A program made the translations under genes and the position numbers. From the NCBI GenBank assembly GCA_037576215.1, contig JBANDB010000007.1, forward strand, positions 5,301,001 through 5,365,000: 64,000 nt of DNA. The letters are read 5' to 3'. The stretch's first letter is position 1; every line of letters begins with the position of its first letter. This DNA comes from Armillaria gallica. Lineage: Eukaryota; Basidiomycota; Agaricomycetes; Agaricales; Physalacriaceae. The notes beneath the pieces are model-generated. The model worked only from the letters and a program-made list of their open reading frames with translations. It was not told the DNA's origin and did no database searches. Positions 50,281 through 63,800 of the stretch are shown here, one piece after another.

Positions 50281-53200
50281 GCGAGGAACTGTACCCAATC
50301 CCAGGCCCGTCATGTGTAAACGGTGTAGCACGGTGCCCAAGGGTTTGGTGAGAATATCCACTGTCATGGATTTGGTAGGGATCCAGGTCGTTTGGAAGAT
50401 TCCGTTCCTGATGTGCTCTCGGATAAAATGGTAGCATATATCGACATGCTTTAATTGGGGCGAATTGGATTCAGAGTTTGCAATTGTGAGACAGCTGTCG
50501 TTGTCAGACAGTAGAGGAAAAGGAACCGGGATGGGAAGAGCCAGGGAAGTAAGGAACAGTTTAATCCAGAGCAGCTCCTTCATGACATGAGTCAGAGCCA
50601 TGTACTCTGACTCCGTCGATGACAGAGTGGTGGACTTTTGTTTGGATGCCGACCATGAGACAAAGCCACCGTAAACGTATATTGCATAGCCGGAGAAGCT
50701 TTTTCTATCGACTTCGTCGGTCCCCCAGTCAGCATCGGAGAAGGCAACGTTGGAAGGAACAACGTTGACGTCTTTTAGGGTAGTGGAAGAGGATGCACCC
50801 CCATACTCCAGTGCATAGTCTTTTGTGCCAGCGAGGTAACATAGTACGCCTTTCGCCGCCACTGCAACTGCCCGTGTTGGGTTTGCATTGTATTGTCCAA
50901 GTGCTGCAGTGGTGAAGGCGATATCAGGCCAGGTGCAAACAGCGGGATATAGTAGCTGTCCGTTGAGACGTTGGAAGTAATGGGTCAGCTTGTCGTCAGA
51001 GACTTCAGGTAAAAGGTCGTCTGATGGAGGGAGATTATGGAGTTTGTTCCGGAGTGGGACAGAAGAAGGGTTGACGTTTTCCATGCTGTAGGACTGGAGA
51101 AGGTCTGCAATGTACTCGGTTTGTGAAATCATCAGCTTCCTGTTCAAACGATCACGATTAATGTGTATGCTGAGGAATACCTCCGCAGGGCCAAGATTGT
51201 TTACTTTGAAATGGAGGTTCAGCTGTACCATGACCCATGCATATAGCGATTTGGAATTGGTCGTGGAGAGGCCATGGTCTACGTGAACGGGGATGATTAT
51301 GAACAGGTCAGAGCTGTCAGATGGCATCGAGATGGAAGGATCAGGCAGAGCAGACCACCTGCCGTAGAACACCGCATGGTCAACAATACAGCTTTCCAGT
51401 CCGATAGAATCCATTGCACTCAATAGAGTCTTGAACCATTCATGTGAAGACTGCTTCAACCCGTACAGGGCTTTGTGGAGGCGTAGGACCATTTTTGGAT
51501 CTGGAAGGAGGAAGCCGGGGATCTGGTGGATGTACACTTCTGGAGCCAAGGGAGCATTCAGAAAAGCTGCCTTGACATCGAACGTGAATAGCTCCAGGTC
51601 GTCTTTAGCTGCCAAGGCGAGAACCAGTCGGATGCTGACCATCTTCGCAACAGGTGCATAAGTGTCACCATAGTCGTCAGGACGTTGTGCAAACCCTTGT
51701 GCTACCAATCTGGCTTTCTCCATGATCTTGGGATGAGTCTTTTTGACGAAAGTCCATCAGGCTCCAATGGCTTTCTTTCCAGGTGGTAGGTAGCATTGAG
51801 ATATGACGTTCTGGTTAACAAGATTTGCATGTTCGGCATCGATGGCGACTTTCCAAAGGTCGCTATCGGGACGAGCCATGGCCTCTTTGAAAGTGAGAGG
51901 TGGTTTGTTCAGATCCCAATCCCGGGTAGAGGGCAATCTGCCACGGTCATGGAATGAGAGCATGCATCGAGGTTGCGAGGAGACCACAGATTCGAAGTTC
52001 TGGAGGGGAACGAGTTCAGAAGTGATTTCTTCGGCGCGGAAGAACCCAGTGAGAGCGGCAAAAGCTTCAGCGGTTTGTAGGCGTGGTAGTATAGTGCCGG
52101 TCTTCGTTTTAGGGTCCTTCTGCATTGCGGCCATCTTTGGGGTTGGTTTGACTGTTCTTTTAGGCCGGGGTTCTTCCTCGTCGATCTCGTCTATCAAGTC
52201 AGGAGGTGCATCTGCCTTCATTGCTATATCAACCTTTGAATTTCGTTTGGAACTCAGTCTACCAGGGGTATTTTCGTTGAATTCCACATCTCACGAGAAG
52301 TGGTATTTCCCTTTAAGATCACGAACTCGCCAGCCAATACGTCCTTCCACGTATCCGACGAATATGGCTTCGAAACGTCTAGGCCCAGCTTTGGTGCGGA
52401 GTTCGGGGGGAATTGCTACGAAGCATTGGCACCCCCATCTACGGAGGTGTGAGAGGTCAGGGATTTGGTTGTGCATGGCTTCATAAGGCATCTTTCCATC
52501 TGGTAGAGTAGAGGTGGGAATTTTTTTTCGAGTGTAAGAGGCCGTCATGATGGTGTCTCCCCAAAACGACATGGGAAGGCCGGAGTCGGCAATCAGTGTC
52601 TGGGCATCATCTTCCAAAGTCCGGATAAATCTTTCTGCTTTCCTGTTTTGTTGGTGGGCGTATGGTGCAGTTAATTGTACTTCGATTCCGGAGTCTTTGA
52701 AATGTTGGCCAAGTTCCCCTTGTGCAAATTCTTTTGTGCCGTCACAGCGGACCTTCTTTACTGTCTCATTAGTCTGGTTCTCCCACAATGCCTGCGTGTC
52801 TTTGAAGACTCATGTACAGTCATTCTTCTTCACGATGGGTTCAGCCTCGTTGTAATTCGTGTGGTCATCTAGGATGGCGAAGAAGTGCTGTTGTTTTTTA
52901 GGCGTTAGTATGGGCATGGGGCCACACGTATCGATGTGGAGGAGTTCCAGTACTTTGGAGGCATGGTTCGCATTGTGATCATAGGGTTTTTGTGCACGTT
53001 TACCCATGATGCATGATGGGCAGAGTTCATGGGGATTTTTCCCATTCCACTGCACCCCCTTAACGCGAGCATTACCAGAAATTAGACGTTTTGTTGTGTC
53101 CTGGCTAGGATGTCCGGTCCTGCAGTGCCACAAGTACACGTCATGTTCTGGTTTCTGGAAAGTAGGGAGCATTGCAAAGGCGGAGGCTTTTGTGTCATCG

Positions 53201-54573
53201 TTTTGGGTTGCGGCCGTGATGAATTCACAATCGAGGAACGAAAGTCTGCCTATGACGTCGGCCTGGAAGGATAGACCGTTTAGCGTCTTATGGGTTTTTG
53301 GAAAATAGCAGGTTGTCTTGTTTTTTCCAAAACCAACATACATCCCATTCTCTGTCATTGCCCCGACAGAGATCAGGTTGATGGGAGCATCTGGTGCGTA
53401 GAGACATTCTCGTAGAATTACAGTGGCTGTCTGACCACTGAGTTTCTTACGGAAATGTACTTCGCCCATAGTGAATGTGTTGAGGATTCCACAGTTCGCC
53501 GTTTCAACAGGGATCGCTTTCGATTCGTCATATGACTGGAATAGCGAGCGATCATTGATGATGTGGTGGGTGGTTCCTGAATCTAATAATGCCTTGAACG
53601 CTTGCATCGCAAGGTGGTAAGACTTAGGATCAGATTTTTGGAAATCGAGGAGAGCATTAGCAGTTGTGAGTATGGTCTCAGAGGATCCTGGAGTATACGA
53701 GTAATAAACGTCGTCGTTTAGGTCTGGTTGTTCAGTACATTCATTTGTATCGTATGGATCATGCTGGGAAGAGTCTTCGTCTGTGGCTGGTATAATAGGA
53801 TTGACCACGAGATTTGCCCTTGCTGTCTGTTTAGCTTTCTGCCTTTCTTGGTATTTCTCTTTTCCCCCTGGGTCGCCACCGCCCTCATGCCAACAGTTAG
53901 CCATGGTGTGGCCTGTTGGGTACGGACACTTGGGGTTCGCGCATACGACACGTTCACATGGTTTGGGTGATGTCTTCGGGTTGCGTGATAGTTTAGAGAG
54001 GTCATGTTGCATGAGTAGTCCATTAGCTTGGCCGATAATGTCTGTGAGTAGGGTGTTAAATGACCCTTGATCGAAGCCATTTGGATTCCTAAGCTCGCCG
54101 ACGACTTTGTTGCGCATTTCAGAGAAGTGAGGAGGAAGAAGGTTTACGATGTCTAAGCTGAGAGTTGCGTATGAGAGTGGGTAGCCTTCCGTGTCTCGTA
54201 GGGTTTGGGCGAGCGAGGTCCAAGATTGAACGAATTGGGGAATGCTATTGATTGAGGTGCAATGTGCGAGCGCAAGTCGTTTATGTTCGAGTAACGCATA
54301 TTGGATGTTTCCACCACCGTAACGTCTGCGTAAGAGGTGGAAGGCCTCTCTCGCCGTGCTACGGGCACCTGTCCCAGGATCCATCAAGGGTGGGATCATT
54401 CCAAGGATCTCGTGTGATAGCCTTGATGTTAAGACTCCGTAGACTACGGCATCTTTACGATGCCAAGCAATCCATTCCTGGGTTTGCTGTGGGAGCGGAT
54501 ACGGATGGAGGATCGGAGGGAAGGATGGGGTGTTCATCGGGTCTTGTGCTATATGCGGAGCGGGGGATCGCAT
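50278..54573 (-). pseudogene. Copia pol polyprotein (late gag, protease, integrase, RT, RNase H), three TGA codons
   Basis: One continuous frame runs from 54573 to 50278 on the minus strand apart from TGA at 52810-52812, 52288-52290 and 51754-51756, each at an expected Arg (CGA to TGA). The order is: late gag with a CPYPTGHTMANCW zinc motif; protease ALLDSGTTHHI; integrase WHCRTGHPS...CPSCIMGK, IDTCGPM, DGTKEF and QNRKAERFIRT; reverse transcriptase TFDVKAAFLNAPL, LYGLKQS and VHVDHGL; RNase H AFSDADWGTDE, SSTESEYMAL and LLSDNDSC. The RT active-site box should be VDD; the second Asp is His, so RT would be dead even without the stops. Confidence 0.9.
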
Positions 54574-55369
54574 ATATGGGTGAATATGGCTCTAGATGTT
54601 AGCAGGTTCTGTACACCATGGTACCATGCGGCCCAGTCCGCCCGGGTTTTTAATTCTGGAATGTGTGAGGTTTGTGGGACGTTATTTTCTAAGGTATTTG
54701 TATGTGGAGTAGGTAAGTATATGTATTGAATTTGTGGTTGAATATTATGGTATTGTTGTACTGGCGTGTTTGGTTGTACGTGAGGGTAAGGAGGGGGGCA
54801 GTATTAGGAACATTGTTGGGGGGAGGGGGAGGTGCCGGTGCAGGGGGAATAGGAATATTTAGTGGGGGTGGAGGAGGAGGAGGAGGAATGGGAGCGAGAG
54901 GTTGGGGGGGAGGGAGAGGAGGTTGAGGAAGGGGAGGACAATTAGGGCAGGGAGGGATGGGTGGAGCTCTATCTGGGGGAGGAATGGTACCTTGCGCGCC
55001 AGTTTGTAAAGTATTTAAAGGATTATTGCAATATTGGTATGTTGTTTGAGAAGGAAAAGTTGGTATGTAATGTGGTGGTGGGATGGTTTGGTATGTATTA
55101 GAAGGATTGTTAAAAGGATTCATGTAAGGATTCGAAACTGAAGGATAAAACATAAACTGAGAAGAGAAATTTTGACCATATGTGGGTGGATGGGGAAACT
55201 GAGGGGCGGACTGGGATGCATACATGGAACCAGGATGCATGTACCCTTGATAAGCCTGGAAGCTTTGACTCGTCGCCATGGCAGAATCACCGAAGGAGGT
55301 TGATGGACCTAATATCTGATGGAGACCGTCGACGAGATGGTTGAATTGTTGGTTTTGTTGTTTGGACAT
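54574..55369 (-). pseudogene. Copia gag N-terminus, Pro-rich, two frame breaks
   Basis: It starts MSKQQNQQFNHLVDGLHQIL at 55369. A Tyr/Pro/Gln-rich region leads to a long proline stretch near 54,850-54,960. The frame slips in a C run near 54,800, continues as NTPVQQYHNIQPQIQ and RADWAAWYHGVQNLL in the next frame, and slips again near 54,560 before the pol frame. The tryptophan-rich block is typical of Copia gag. Confidence 0.7.
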
Positions 55370-56386: not shown

Positions 56387-56487
56387 TTTAATCGATATTT
56401 CCATTACTCACTGCACAAAGTACTCTTTTGTATGTCATGATTCGGAGGGGACACATAGAAGTGGTGGGAATTGGCAGCCTGAGTTCT
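56387..56487. repeat. Left copy of a 101-bp duplication flanking the recombinase element
   Basis: Ty3 gag sequence starting TTTAATCG and ending GAGTTCT. It recurs at 60080-60180 with three transitions. In the first Ty3 copy the corresponding gag text is present once. Confidence 0.85.
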
Positions 56488-56647
56488 TCATGTGTCAGAG
56501 CCGGTGAATACAGTACATGAGTGGAGAAAGTGAGGGAAATGGTGTACAGTACGAATAGATAGAAAATTGTCCAAAAAGCAAAAAGTCCATATGAAAAAGG
56601 TCCCATGACGATGACGAAGTCTGTGATAACTAGGGAAGGGAGGGAGG

Positions 56648-56985
56648 GTAACCGAAAAGACTATGATACCGAGTTTGGGAGGACAGTGAGAAGGTGAAAC
56701 TGAGAGTGATGATTCAAGCTTACCTGGTAGGACAGTGAGGGGATGAGTGAGAGAGCGATGTAGCTCCTCTCCGTGATGCACTGCCCTACCAGGAACCGAT
56801 TGAGAGACACTTGCGAGAACCTGGTCTTCAAGCAAGTGTCGGGGTAAGATTACTGTGAGGATCTCGGTCCTTTGAACGGCACTATCATGAGGATCCCGGT
56901 CCTGTGACTTGATCTGGCATCCCGGTACCAATCTCTGTTCTGCGCTTGCCACAATTAGACTTGCATAAAGCAAGCTTTAAACCCA
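56648..56985 (-). repeat. Inner 338-bp direct repeat of the recombinase element
   Basis: Same length as the copy at 59742-60079, differing at nine sites, eight of them CpG-type. Confidence 0.88.
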
Positions 56986-57195
56986 TCTAATTGCGTTGCT
57001 CCCTTAGGACTCTGATGTAGCTAAAAGCAGCCTCCTGGAAATGTTTCCAGGGGGCCCTAAAAACATCGATTTTGGCACATCGTGTGTCAGAGCCGGTAAT
57101 GTGATAATGGAGAGAAAATTTTGTGAAGAAAGAGTGATAAAGGTTGTTGGAAAGGAAGATGAGATTGAAGGTGGGAAGGACAGCGACACGAGGAC

Positions 57196-58212
57196 TCAGA
57201 ACGATTGCGTTGATCTAGTGGCTTCTCTTCGGGAGAATAGAATTGCCTGAAGGAGTACAGGGTTCTTCTGTATGTAGATCTGAAAGGTATCAGTCGACCA
57301 ACACCCCATAGCTTGAATGATATGTGGGGCTGTGCCATCTTCAGCTAGTCCAGTGGCACCACCAGCTCGCATGGATTGCCCTGCAATGCGCTTGTCTGGG
57401 AAAACAGTCCTGAGTTTGCGAATGAACTATCCATGTGTAGGACAGTCCCCGTTTTCTCAGACCCAGAGCAATGGATGGATTGGGAAAAACCTGTCCCGAG
57501 AAGCGATGTATGTGGTGAAGGGAGCATGTGGATCCACAGTGTCTCAGCACTTGATGATGATCCTGTTGCCCTCGAAGGATGTGTCAGCCTTGTGAGCAAG
57601 CAGCCAAAAGGAGTAAGAATTGTCATGAATCTCCACACTCGCCCATCGAGTGAGTTTCCTCCAGTTCCACAACTTCTTTGAATCAGGCATGCTTACTTCT
57701 GCTAAGCATAGAAGGCCGTAGAACCCAGTAAGGATCATAGCCACAAAGAGCAAGTCATTGTGAGATGTGGAGGCATTGAACTTGTCAAGTACAATTTGTA
57801 ACTGGGGACGGGTGAGGGGCAGTTTACATTTAACTGTGGTGCCGCGCAATCGCATGCATCCCTTCAGCATCCGTTTGACGAGTAAGGACTTGCGGATAGC
57901 ACGGACATCAGGGAAGTAATGTTCGAGCTGATTGCAGATGCCTGAAAGATAGGAGTCCACCGATTTTGGCTTGATATGATATGACATGTAAACGACGAAG
58001 AAGCTGAGCATGTCTGGCGTCGGTTCAATAGGGAAGTCGTGTCATTGACAGAAAGAAATGTATGAATTGAGGGCAGATGTGTATGTATGAGCTGTCCCCG
58101 TATCGATTGCAAACCCAAGAGCAACAGAACGTTCGTGAACTAAGCGTTCCACGGTCCATGCCTCGCGATGTGGTTGTCTAGCCCCTTTTGACAACGAAAA
58201 TTTTGGAGCCAT
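57196..58212 (-). pseudogene. Tyrosine recombinase of the YR element, four nonsense codons
   Basis: Such enzymes cut and rejoin DNA through a Tyr nucleophile and integrate circular element DNA. The start at 58212 gives MAPKFSLSKGARQPHREAW. An N-terminal core-binding part follows (LNSYISFC, KPKSVDSYLSGICNQLE), then the catalytic part: TGFYGLLCLAEV (first Arg expected, now Cys), WLLAHKADTSFEGNR, GQSMRAGGATGLAEDG (Arg kept), PHIIQAMGCWSTDTFQIYI with the Tyr. The frame is 339 codons with TGA at 58042-58044 and 57544-57546, TGA near 57,458 and TAG near 57,431; three fit CGA to TGA and one fits TGG to TAG. No indel is seen. Confidence 0.82.
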
Positions 58213-58516
58213 AGAGCTTTGGCGGTGTGAGAAGAATGCAACCAGTGTTCAAGTTCTGAATTGTTGCAGCTAGTGCTACTCAAAGACTCCCAGTAAATGC
58301 CTAACGTAGTGTTCAGGAGTCTGGTTGTCTTGATGGAAAGGGGAGAGAAGAGGAAAGTAGCGTGGGTGTCCAAGATGCTATAGCCGTGACGAAAAATATA
58401 GACCGTGTGTTGATACAAGCTGAGGATAAAACTTGCAAGCTCACTTAACAAAGTGTTCAAGTGGATCGTTTGTCGTTTCCAATGCGCGGGCATTTTGTAA
58501 TCACATGTTTCAGGTC

Positions 58517-59689
58517 TCAGCAAATAATGCAGACATGGACACGGCGGCACTTGTTGCCGAAGTGGCACTCTCCCCAGTTGTAATTCCTGCAGACTTCGTC
58601 AGAGATGGCAGGACCTGGATTCTGAGATACCAGTTTCGATTTGGCTGTGATCTTCTTGGATGTCTCTGTTGTGCCCTGGACAACAGCAACTCCGACTGAG
58701 TCAATGTACACCGTCTTCTCATGCATAAACTCGTGGAAGTCTGAGAATAGGATATCACGCCTTGAACCAATGATGATGTGAGCTGCACGATCATAGTTGA
58801 TGACTCGATAGTGGAGGGACGAGTGGCAGACACTAAAAAGCTTGTTGACATGTCGCATGTATGCATTGAGTTCGTGTCCTCGTGATGGGAAAGCAAAGAG
58901 CACGGCTTCGGTATAAGCCTGCCAGGCAATAACCCAATGGCCGTGTTCGGTGATCTTGTTGCTCGATTTCATGGAATCAAGCGCAATGGAAACCCCTTCA
59001 CCAATCTCCATGGTTATCTCCTTGTCTATGGTTGCCGAGTTAATGCTGGCAAAGATCTCATCGAAGTCTACAGCGTCATCTTGAAGAATAGCCGTCCATA
59101 ACTTTTCAGGTAGGCTAGGACAGTCAATCGACATGCAAAGGTCTCGTTTTGCCTTCTTGATGTTCTTTCCATAGACTTGAATGAGGCGGCGAATTTCAAT
59201 CACTTCCGGGTGAAGTGTAGGCTTCGCCCCCATCAGACTAGGAAAACGCCAAGCATAAGAAGACTGGGGTTTGTCGGAGTCAGAACCCGAGTCCATGGAT
59301 GATTCCGAAGATGTGGTAGCCTGCTTGCATTGTTTCCTACGTTTGTTGTGAACCTTTTGTTTTGTTTTCTTGTTCTTTTCTCCAGGATTGCTCTCTCGCT
59401 CTGTATCAGCTTCATCCTCTGATGGATCTCCCTTGATAGGTTTTCCTCTCTCTGCTGCCATCTTAGTCTGCTCGATGTGAGCGAGAACCTGCTGCACATA
59501 TGGGCGTGAGAGAGGTTCTGCCATTTCGGGACCCAGGTCTAATTTCACCGCTGCTTCCCCAACAGTTCCGTAAAGCAGGGTAAGGGTCTGTGACTCGGTT
59601 CTTTTGCTGTCATGAAAATCTTGAACTATGGATTCGAGGGATGCGATGATTTCCTCACCGAATTGAGGTGTGTCACCCATGTCAGACAT
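58517..59689 (-). pseudogene. Gag-like ORF of the recombinase element
   Basis: The 390-residue frame opens MSDMGDTPQFGEEIIASLES. It has a basic, acidic-patched linker (SEDEADTERESNPGEKNKK) and a helical core (VIEIRRLIQVYGKNIKKAK, WVIAWQAYTEAVLFAFP, LNAYMRHVNKLF). A CCCH finger follows (CRNYNWGECHFGNKCRRVH), then VCIIC directly before the TGA at 58517-58519. Reading past that TGA continues DLKHVITKCP, completing a CxxC...H...C knuckle, so the stop is probably CGA to TGA and the real protein slightly longer. CCCH followed by a knuckle is typical, by recall, of DIRS-type gag. Confidence 0.72.
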
Positions 59690-59741
59690 CGCAAAAGGTG
59701 ATGATACAGAGTAGAGGATGGAATATAATGATATTCAAATA

Positions 59742-60079
59742 GTAACCGAAAAGACTACGATACCGAGTCTGGGAGGACAGTGAGAAGGTGAAACTGAGAG
59801 TGATGATTCAAGCTTACCTGGTAGGACAGTGAGGGGATGAGTGAGAGAGTGATGTAGCTCCTCTCCGTGATGCACTGCCCTACCAGGAACTGATTGAGAG
59901 ACACTTGCGAGAACCTGGTCTTCAAGCAAGTGTCGGGGTAAGATTACTGTGAGGATCTCGGTCCTTTGAACGGCACTATCATGAGGATCCCAGTCCTGTG
60001 ACTTGATCTGGCATCCTGGTACCAATCTCTGTTCTGCACTTGCCGCAATTAGACTTGTGTAAAGCAAGCTTTAAACCCA
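59742..60079 (-). repeat. Terminal 338-bp direct repeat of the recombinase element
   Basis: This is the right (5') end of the element, abutting the 101-bp duplication. It ends AAACCCA at 60079. Confidence 0.88.
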
Positions 60080-60180
60080 TTTAATCGACATTTCCATTAC
60101 TCACTGCACAAAGTACTCTTTTGTGTGTCATGATTCGGAGGGGACACACAGAAGTGGTGGGAATTGGCAGCCTGAGTTCT
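60080..60180. repeat. Right copy of the 101-bp flanking duplication
   Basis: Matches 56387-56487 with three transitions; the gag text then continues uninterrupted. Confidence 0.85.
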
Positions 60181-60868: not shown

Positions 60869-63800
60869 GCAATTTGACTTACCCGGCCAAGGACTTAGTT
60901 TCATCTGGTACACATTCACCACCTGCTAGCCAGACTTATGATACTTCTGTAGTTACAACCACGCATTCGAATATACTCGTGACTTTGCAATCAGATCAGA
61001 AACTAAGCAAGAATTGACCAACAGTGCACACTGAAGTGGCTAAATTGTCAGCAACACGACTGGCTAAATGTTCTGCAAGTAACTCACTATAAGTGAACAC
61101 GATGAACAAAAAGGGGGCTACCATATCCCCACCCATCATAGTGGCATGACCAGATGGGGCAGGGGAACAAGCGACTCAAGTCACCCCCCCTGACAAAGTG
61201 GCTCCATGGAGTCTCAGCCTCACTGAGAGTTTTGAGGGAATAGCTACAGTGAAACCTTCTCTGGGAATGGAGAACACCACAAAGGAACTAAAGGGAGAAG
61301 AACTCTCAAAGGAGACCCTGAGCAAAATCACCTAGACACAAGATCCTTACAACAGGAGCCCGGGTTGAGCGACGCCTAAGGTGAGTATAGTAGAAGTACC
61401 TGATGAGAAGGATGACATGAGTTTTTGGAGATAGGAGGAGGCTAACAAAATTCCCTCTGTAACACCTGAGGTGACCCAGTCAATGGTAGCTGAACCTTCA
61501 AGTTCTGGTGCAAAGACCGAGAAGGTCCCACATGAATGGCTAAAGCCATTTGGTGCTGAATGGACATTATGAGGAATTGTGGAAGTGAAGACAGAGTCAG
61601 AAGCCAGAGCAATTCTAAAGAACTGGATTCACAAGGCATGAATGGAGGAGGTGGTTGATGAGATGATTGAAGGCTTAAGGCAAGTGACACAAATTGATGC
61701 CTTAAACTGGATGGAAGAGTTACAACAGCTGAGGCAATACATCAGCAGACTAAGTGGGAAGGGGAAGGATCTAGTAATTGACATACAACTCAAAACACTA
61801 GAGAATCTGACCCAAATTTCCACCACCGCATTAGTTGATAGTGGGTGCATCAGCAGTGCCATTAACCGAGCATTTGTCAAGCAACACAATATTCCTACCC
61901 ATGTGATGGCAGCACCATTTGCTGTCTACAATTCTGATGGCATATGAAACCAGGAGGGAGCCATTACCAAGTTTGCCAAAGTCCATATCAAAATTGGTGA
62001 TTATGCGGAATGCATTGACTTGGCTGTCACTGACCTAAATGATTAACAAGTCTTTCTTGGCCATGATTGGCTAGCAAGCACAACCCACAAATCAATTGGA
62101 AGACCAGGAAAATGATGTTTGCCTGATATCACTGCCACAAAACCCCATTCGTACTCCCTGATGCAGATTCTGATGAGAAGTGGGATGAAGAACTGGAAGA
62201 GGGAGAGACCATTTTAGCAATAGACTTCACCCAAGCCATCCACATACGCACTCATCATGCCAATGATTTAGCCACCAAAGCCAATGCAAGGAAGGAGACC
62301 AAAATGTTCAAAGAAATGGTTCCAGAATGGTGCAGGGATTTCAAAGACTTATTTGACAAGGACAATTTCAATGAACTCCCTGAGCCAAAAACCTGAGACC
62401 ATGCCATTGAACTCATCCCAAATGCCAGCACTAATCTTGATTGCAAGGTCTATCCACTCAATCAAAGTGAGCAGGAAGAACTCAACAAGTTCCTGGATGA
62501 AAACCTGTCAAATGGGAGGATACAACCATCAAAGTCCCCCATGGCTTCACCTTTTTTCTTTGTCAAAAAGAAAGATGGCAAGCTACAACCAGTACAGGAC
62601 TATCACAAACTCAATGAGATGACAATTACGAACTGGTACCCACTTCCCCTCATTTTGGAACTTATGGACAAACTGCGAGGCACCAAGTACTTCTCTAAAC
62701 TTGATGTTCATTGGGGATACCACAACATACGAATCAAGGATGGAAATGGGTGGAAGGCAGCATTCAGGGCCAATCAAGGCCTGTTAGAACCAACAGTCAT
62801 GTTCTTTGGACTAACCAATTCACCCGCCACCTTTCAGTGGATGATGAATGACATCTTCAAAGATCTTATCGCATTGGGGGCAGTAACCATCTACCTCAAT
62901 GACATTCTTATCATGTCCAAAACCAAGGAAGAGCACCACTGCATCACCTGCAAAGTTCTAAAGGTCCTCTAAAAGAACAAACTGTTTCTCAAAGTGGAAA
63001 AATGCAAATTCAAAGTACTAGAAACAGAGTATCTTGGAGTCATCATCAGCGAAAGAAGCATTTGGATGGATCCAGTAAAAATTAAGGAAATAGCAGAATG
63101 GCCAGTACCAACCAAAAATCAGCAGCTCCAATCATTCCTTAGATTCACCAACTTCTACCAACAATTTATCAAAGGATATAGCAAAATCGTCAAACCAATA
63201 ACTCAGCTGACAGGAAATGAAGCATGGAAATGGGGAGCAGTGCAACAAAACACTTTTGACCAACTGAGGAAACAGTTGGCAGAGGATGTTGTACTAGCAA
63301 TACCAACAGAAGGGGGAAGGTTCCACATGGAAGTGGATGCTAGTGAGGGGGCAATAGGCACTGTTTTATCCCAAGAACAAGAAGAGAAATGGCACCCAGT
63401 CACATTTTTATCCAAAGCACTTACAGTGATGGAACGAAACTATGAAATTTATGACAAAGAGTTACTCGCCATCATGCTTGCTCTCAATGAGTGGAGACAT
63501 TACCTGATGGGAGCCACTCAGGATTTTGAAATATGGACAGACCACCAAAACCTCCAGTACTTCCAGCAACTCCAGAAGCTAAACTGATGACAAGTATGCT
63601 GGGTTACTGAGTTGGCCGAATACCATTTCACCCTTCATTACAAAGCAGGCATAGCAAACAAGAAAGCTGACTTTCTTAGCTGAAGGGCAGATCATGAACA
63701 AGGCAAAGATGGCAATGACAAGATCATAGTCCTCAAACCTGAGCACTTCCACACCATGATCATGCCCACAATAGAGGAGACACAGGCAAAGGTTAAACAC

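What the first reader, a model, noticed from the sequence alone, without database searches (positions are those of the whole stretch)
56488..60079. Tyrosine-recombinase element with gag-like ORF but no reverse transcriptase
The 3.6-kb element holds only a CCCH/CCHC gag-like protein and a tyrosine recombinase. A 338-bp repeat (A) and a short CCGGCTCTGACACA motif (B) are arranged A-ORFs-B-A-B on the element strand, the split-direct-repeat layout known for DIRS/Ngaro retroelements. Those normally encode RT and RNase H between gag and recombinase; here the two ORFs are separated by only about 300 bases. It is either a non-autonomous DIRS-like deletion derivative or a new class that moves by recombinase with a gag-like partner.
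Basis: partly seen in the sequence, partly recalled or inferred. Interest (0 to 1): 0.75.

Follow-up and report, generated by a model that had tools for sequence, protein, structure and literature searches.

The report
Mobile element missing its copying enzyme
A fungal mobile element carries an RNA-packaging-like gene and a cut-and-join enzyme but no copying enzyme; it belongs to an old, selected lineage, and the same genome holds a family with only the copying enzyme and similar ends, so the two may move as a pair.

Summary
Window 56488-60079 (minus strand) is A-ORF1-YR-B-A-B: 338-bp A repeats 97% identical, an 18-nt B motif twice, a CCCH protein and a tyrosine recombinase (YR), without reverse transcriptase (RT). 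This copy is dead and sits in a Ty3/Gypsy element, flanked by an odd 101-bp duplication.

It is not a one-off deletion. Of 8 loci of this lineage found in the same 86-Mb genome (probably Armillaria), none has RT nearby and 7 share a 313-323 bp ORF1-YR gap. Two subfamilies (72-74% DNA identity) show strong purifying selection on both genes since their split. All-in-one Ngaro-like relatives (ORF1-RT/RNase H-YR) form a separate lineage.

Another lineage carries only RT-RNase H: six loci without ORF1 or YR of their own, one open over 655 codons; the one pair compared shows purifying selection. Its ends match the window family's at 31 of 33 positions (29 for all-in-one). Both halves have relatives in A. 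ostoyae and A. gallica.

Best reading: an Ngaro-type YR retroelement whose genes became split over two mobile units, RT acting in trans. The separate lineages and the selection are shown; cooperation is inferred. Help from all-in-one elements, or RT-free movement, is not excluded.

The parts
56986..60079 (-). Full gag-like+YR unit (A1-ORF1-YR-B1-tail), 3,094 bp; matches L024 at 96%, L035 at 91% (5' end lost), L032 and L033 at 72-73%, each of which ends where this unit ends
59742..60079 (-). Repeat A1; 5' end reads TTAA-A-TGGGTTTAAAGCTTGCTTTA..CAAGTCTAATTG across the junction with flanking DNA
58517..59689 (-). ORF1 from its ATG to a TGA inside the zinc knuckle: gag-like protein, CCCH finger; 90% identical to A. 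ostoyae ARMOST_08764
58457..58516 (-). Rest of the ORF1 frame after the TGA: second half of a CX2CX4HX4C knuckle and the C-terminus
57232..58200 (-). Tyrosine recombinase gene, 4 stops in this copy; catalytic Arg I changed to Cys, QxxR, W and Y still readable
   Evidence: Cre-like fold (model of sibling L033)
57080..57097 (-). B1 motif
56986..57079 (-). 3' tail of the unit, ending GCAATTAGA; the unit boundary in siblings
56978..56997 (-). B1-tail/A2 joint (..CAATTAGA/TGGGTTT..), end-to-start as a circle junction would be
56648..56985 (-). Repeat A2
56506..56647 (-). 142-bp stretch otherwise matched only in short A-B units (L025, L028)
56488..56505 (-). B2 motif; the copy stops here, without the 94-bp tail
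60080..60180 (.). 101-bp flanking duplication, copy 1 (part of the Ty3/Gypsy element that was hit)
56387..56487 (.). 101-bp flanking duplication, copy 2

Best explanation
The element belongs to an old lineage of Ngaro-type YR retroelements that keeps only a gag-like RNA-binding protein and the YR ('G units', 3.1 kb). It most likely moves as half of a two-unit system. G units supply gag-like protein and YR. RT-only units ('R units', about 2.5-2.8 kb) supply RT-RNase H. RNAs of both are packed, copied and closed into circles whose junction (..ATTAG(A/T)/(T/C)GGGTTTAAA..) the YR joins into TTAA-like targets. Shown: the RT-less lineage, a separate RT-only lineage, purifying selection on ORF1, YR and RT in the copies compared, similar ends, and absence of target duplication in 7 inserts. 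Inferred: packaging, RT in trans, circles, and that G and R serve each other.
For: Of 8 loci with a YR match of 68% identity or more, 7 have ORF1 beside it with a gap of 313-323 bp and none has an RT match within 15 kb on its strand; the eighth is broken. Between subfamilies ORF1 pN 0.139-0.166, pS 0.653-0.737 (9 pairs) and YR pN 0.112-0.139, pS 0.669-0.679 (6 pairs); the shifted YR frame gives pN 0.262-0.279, pS 0.186-0.198 (2 between-subfamily pairs). Six R loci carry RT without ORF1 or YR of their own; L048 is open over 655 codons stop to stop, with about 250 bp left on either side. L048 against L040: pN 0.199, pS 0.792; other frames pN 0.340 and 0.366, pS 0.301 and 0.209. Terminal 33 nt: G-R 31, G-N 29, R-N 28 identical (one string per type). 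Folds: Cre-like YR, retroviral-type RT. Relatives of both halves in A. ostoyae and A. gallica.
Against: No direct evidence that G and R cooperate. The G-R end match (31/33) is only two to three positions better than G-N or R-N. Of the five G copies aligned over both genes none is free of stops, so activity may have ended. All-in-one elements in the same genome could supply RT to G, and gag and YR to R. Five of the six G copies read to the 3' end lack A2-B2, which RT-free circle insertion would also give. The trees do not show that G and R come from one ancestor.
Confidence: 0.5

Rival explanations
1. G units are satellites of the all-in-one Ngaro-like elements (N): N gives RT, G keeps its own gag-like protein and YR. 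R units are a separate, independent satellite.
For: N elements are in the genome; L044 has unbroken ORFs and is 98% identical to L046 over 4.9 kb, hence probably recent. G-N ends agree at 29 of 33.
Against: YR is only about 55% and ORF1 about 35% identical between G and N; beyond the 33 nt, by eye, G and R still resemble each other while N does not (sequences).
Confidence: 0.22
2. G units moved as RT-free DNA elements: YR excises and inserts circles, as proposed for Cryptons; ORF1 is a DNA-binding helper.
For: Seven of 7 inserts examined (3 full, 3 short, 1 inner-deletion form) end exactly at ..CAATTAGA and show no target duplication; an end-to-start joint occurs at 56985/56986.
Against: ORF1 is homologous to the protein in the gag position of the RT-bearing relatives, carries a retroviral-type CX2CX4HX4C knuckle (read by eye) and is strongly conserved; A1 and A2 differ as much as the flanking duplication (3.0% each), as if copied from one template at insertion.
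Confidence: 0.2
3. The window element is an ordinary dead internal-deletion derivative of an RT-bearing element.
For: RT-bearing relatives exist; the window copy is broken.
Against: The same gap in 7 loci, two subfamilies with alignable gap sequence, purifying selection since the split.
Confidence: 0.04
4. The A-ORFs-B-A-B layout of this copy is not a founding split repeat but a full unit joined to a resident short A-B unit.
For: Of six G copies read to the 3' end only the window copy has A2-B2; short A-B units occur alone (L025, L028, L031), two of them with the same 142-bp inner stretch.
Against: A1 is closer to A2 (97%) than to the A of any other copy (95% at best); a B-A joint recurs in R (L040, L044 upstream) and two N-type 5' ends lie 4,894 bp apart on C12.
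Confidence: 0.35

Closest known systems
Ngaro retrotransposons of Agaricomycotina (Muszewska et al. 2013, PMC3783388; passages read)
   Same: YR, gag-like ORF1, A-pol-B-A-B repeats in the window copy, RT-RNase H relatives in the same genome
   Different: No RT or RNase H near any of 8 loci of the lineage; RT-RNase H alone sits in another lineage of units. The passages read call most elements found truncated or incomplete and describe no split form.
VIPER and its short form SIRE (PMC6681497; passages read)
   Same: SIRE corresponds to the A2-B2 part of VIPER and has a short inner stretch of its own; the short A-B units here have the same make-up
   Different: VIPER keeps gag-like, YR and RT/RH in one element
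Cryptons (PMC3212892; passages read)
   Same: YR without RT; proposed circle insertion; no ordinary target duplication
   Different: A gag-like partner; long repeats in the window copy; YR nearest, within this genome, to those of RT-bearing elements
LTR retroelements lacking genes, such as TR-GAG and BARE2 (search listing only; nature recalled)
   Same: Partial gene set, thought to be helped in trans
   Different: Here recombinase and gag-like genes are both kept under selection, and a lineage with only the missing genes is present

Membership tests
Ngaro | Tyrosine recombinase | tested here: met
   Cre-like fold of the L033 sequence; PF00589 at E up to 0.1 in 21 of 36 relatives; catalytic R, QxxR, W and Y recognisable across the five copies aligned, though four of the five have lost an Arg
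Ngaro | RT and RNase H in the element | tested here: not met
   No RT match near any of 8 loci
Ngaro | A-pol-B-A-B split direct repeats | tested here: inconclusive
   Present in the window copy, with B2 cut short; absent in the five other copies read to the 3' end
Ngaro | No methyltransferase domain | tested here: met
   No such Pfam match in the six window frames scanned; little room in the 3.1-kb unit
DIRS | Inverted terminal repeats and internal complementary region | tested here: not met
   The long repeats are direct; only short inverted pairs
Crypton | YR as the only transposition enzyme | tested here: met
Crypton | No long direct repeats; 4-6 bp direct repeats at the ends | tested here: inconclusive
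   Single units lack long repeats and share TTA-like bases at the ends; the window copy has 338-bp direct repeats
LTR retrotransposon | LTRs at both ends with a 4-6 bp target duplication | tested here: not met
   Siblings have a single A; 7 of 7 inserts without target duplication; the window shows 101 bp instead
Two-unit YR retroelement (proposed) | Complementary gene sets on separate units with similar ends, both under selection | tested here: met
   the end similarity is modest and selection on RT rests on one pair
Two-unit YR retroelement (proposed) | Each unit uses the other's proteins | not testable with these tools
   needs biochemistry or strain data

The most novel reading that the evidence does not exclude
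A bipartite retrotransposon: the genes of one Ngaro-type element have been partitioned for a long time between two mobile units, one with gag-like protein and tyrosine recombinase, the other with RT-RNase H, which share ends and replicate each other, much as multipartite viruses do.
Probability: 0.4. Interest if true: 0.87.

Novelty: new variant of a known kind. Interest (0 to 1): 0.72.

Why it matters
Self-sufficient retroelements usually carry gag, RT and integrase together, and partial copies are commonly set aside as remnants. Here two partial forms look like stable lineages whose genes have stayed under selection, a natural test of whether a retroelement can live split in two.

Tried and rejected
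Simple deletion product: rejected. LTR element: rejected. RT remnant in the ORF1-YR gap: I only looked at the gap alignment; no profile search of the gap was made. A Pfam scan of the L044 pol frame alone found no RT; the family is recognised through relatives (at E up to 0.1, RVT_thumb in 19 of 32, RVT_3 in 13, RVT_1 in 1) and by fold (model of the A. gallica relative P0129). A sequence search of the PDB failed for the single YR and for the RT profile, while the YR profile found Cre (E 2e-4). No shifted-frame control was run for ORF1. The terminus counts printed are out of register and void; one search replaces them. In one search the row N_L046_part was read in a wrong frame and its place is void; the G clade (3 rows) and R clade (4 rows) have support 100/100, the 14 other rows per tree were picked by me from the 120 listed in each search, and the backbone is unresolved. 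Alignment A1 held a useless 21-base stub and was replaced by A2. Literature: 10 searches and passages of five papers (PMC3783388, PMC4157794, PMC3212892, PMC6681497, PMC7487993) showed no split YR retroelement; I saw listings and passages only, and most subscription papers are not held, so absence from print is not shown.

Full report
What is in the window. The minus strand of 60079-56488 reads A1 (338 bp), ORF1, YR, B1 with a 94-bp tail, A2, a 142-bp stretch, and B2. A1 and A2 differ at 10 of 338 positions, all transitions; the 101-bp sequence that flanks the element on both sides differs at 3 of 101, all transitions. The equal divergence (3.0% each) fits A1=A2 and the flanking duplication arising together (inferred). 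The target is a Ty3/Gypsy-type element: RT at 62397-62969 and RNase H at 62973-63584; that the duplicated stretch is its gag is read by eye. The window copy is dead: a TGA in the ORF1 knuckle, four stops in YR and a changed catalytic Arg.

Siblings in the same genome. The window lies in an unnamed assembly of 86,048,263 bases in 28 contigs. Its ORF1 is 84-94% identical to proteins of A. ostoyae, A. gallica and one unnamed source, and 64-70% to further ones of A. nabsnona and A. ostoyae, so the host is very probably an Armillaria (inferred). Searches with A, YR and ORF1 (the tool calls its counts lower bounds) gave full units L024 (96%), L032 and L033 (72-73%), L035 (5' end lost, 91%), and a copy on C1 that seems broken by about 9 kb (L030 with L045). 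Short units without the ORFs are L025, L028 and L031; L026 is an inner-deletion form; L027 and L029 match in A only. Of six copies with YR read to the 3' end, only the window copy has A2-B2. In 7 of 7 inserts examined at both ends (L024, L025, L026, L028, L031, L032, L033) the 3' end is ..GCAATTAGA and no target duplication longer than 3 chance bases is seen. The flank before the 5' end is TTAA plus one base in 5 of these 7; over all 5' ends printed and assigned it is 6 of 11 for G, 1 of 2 for R (L048, not L040) and 1 of 2 for N (L046, not L044); several of the rest differ from TTAA at one base. The short units correspond to what SIRE is to VIPER (PMC6681497).

No RT, by descent. Eight loci have a YR match of at least 68% identity to the L033 sequence. 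In 7 of them ORF1 lies beside it at 313-323 bp (coordinates); in the eighth the YR is at C12:616k and ORF1 at C12:643k. None of the 8 has an RT match within 15 kb on its strand. A 46-codon YR fragment at C1:6939489 (67%) is left out. The gap sequence is alignable between the two subfamilies, so RT was most likely lost once, before they split (inferred). Since then both genes were under purifying selection: ORF1 pN 0.139-0.166, pS 0.653-0.737 in 9 between-subfamily pairs; YR pN 0.112-0.139, pS 0.669-0.679 in 6 pairs. The YR frame shifted by one gives pN 0.262-0.279 and pS 0.186-0.198 in two between-subfamily pairs. Synonymous sites are near saturation, so dN/dS (0.05-0.12) is rough. Within subfamilies the ratio is higher (ORF1 0.15-0.31; YR 0.32 twice, 0.46, and 1.03 for window-L024), as expected of decaying copies.

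All-in-one relatives (N). L044 carries ORF1 (452 codons stop to stop), a pol frame and a YR frame (382 codons) without stops, overlapping; L046 is 98% identical over 4,890 bp. Seventeen clusters hold ORF1, RT and YR (one of them merges L044 with an RT-only copy about 10 kb away). Eight of them have an ORF1-YR gap of 1,987-2,004 bp; the others are wider or interrupted. Their YR is mostly 48-57% and ORF1 mostly 32-38% identical to the window lineage, with a more distant group near 28-35% in YR. RT motifs (SDVSKAYR, YVDDDFS, then RNase H) are read by eye; profile support comes from relatives and from the fold. The remaining clusters are 7 ORF1+YR (the window lineage), 7 RT+YR, 2 ORF1+RT, 2 ORF1 alone, 8 RT alone and 23 YR alone; most YR-alone rows are weak or short matches, and at least C12:385k/404k and C5:3757k/3796k look like broken all-in-one copies.

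RT-only lineage (R). Six loci have RT of another lineage (main matches 64-76% identical to L048, while all-in-one loci are mostly 41-48% and the most distant 31-35%) with no ORF1 or YR of their own: C21:855047, C4:1223087, C9:265979, C4:7248535, C1:8050255, C8:392719. In one search five appear as RT alone, the sixth (C8) is merged with L044; the other three RT-alone rows are stubs of about 30 codons. Two loci were read: L048 (unit of about 2.46 kb, one open frame of 655 codons stop to stop) and L040 (2,824 bp from A1 to the B1/A2 joint, then part of A2; broken frames). L048 against L040, 644 codons: pN 0.199, pS 0.792 in frame; pN 0.340 and 0.366, pS 0.301 and 0.209 in the other frames. A. ostoyae ARMOST_17681 (72%) and an A. 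gallica protein (73%) are relatives.

Ends. A genome scan for GGGTTTAAANNTTNNTTTANNCAAGTCTAATTG with up to 3 mismatches found 75 places, 26 of them exact, and none for the reversed control. By the letters at the open positions the 26 fall into G type (11), R type (8), N type (6) and one other; of six with one mismatch 1 is G, 4 are R and 1 other. G and R agree at 31 of 33, G and N at 29, R and N at 28. By eye, from the sequences, the 16 bases up to ..ATTAG at the 3' end agree at 13 positions between G and R and at 8 between G and N (one N copy). This favours G-R sharing but is modest evidence.

Layout. B1-A2 joints occur in G (window), R (L040 and the piece upstream of L044) and probably N (two N-type 5' ends 4,894 bp apart on C12, not read). 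In the three that were read the part after the joint is cut short at different places. A plausible but unproven reading is that such copies came from linear or multimeric DNA whose far end was joined by repair; by eye there is a TGA microhomology at the 101-bp duplication (strings).

Verdict. Shown: an RT-less, gag-like plus YR lineage kept by selection, and an RT-only lineage whose one compared pair shows selection, in one genome, with similar ends. Inferred: that they form one split system. The trees show the G and R sequences tested as separate clades (100/100) but do not resolve their origin.

Noticed in passing
window 56387-56487 and 60080-60180: 101-bp flanking duplication, far longer than a target duplication expected of a YR or LTR element; TGA microhomology at the junction by eye
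   Followed up: partly
window 52813-54591 (-): Copia-type gag-pol frame (Pol_BBD, gag_pre-integrs)
   Followed up: no
window 62397-63584 (+): RT and RNase H (Ty3/Gypsy-type) of the element into which the window copy is inserted
   Followed up: partly
L034, L036-L039, L041-L043: Stretches resembling the G-type 5' end (68-87% identity over 45-270 bp) at places with no ORF1, YR or RT match: probably a further short non-coding family
   Followed up: no
L044 1-690: B-A-B piece of the RT-only family directly upstream of an unbroken all-in-one element
   Followed up: partly
L044 821-5710: All-in-one Ngaro-like element with unbroken ORFs, 98% identical to L046: probably recently mobile
   Followed up: partly
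L026 4853-5217: Copy with A joined to the last 41 bases of the unit: an inner-deletion short form that still has exact ends
   Followed up: no
C12:2815792 and C12:2820686: Two N-type 5' ends 4,894 bp apart around an all-in-one element: probably A1 and A2
   Followed up: no
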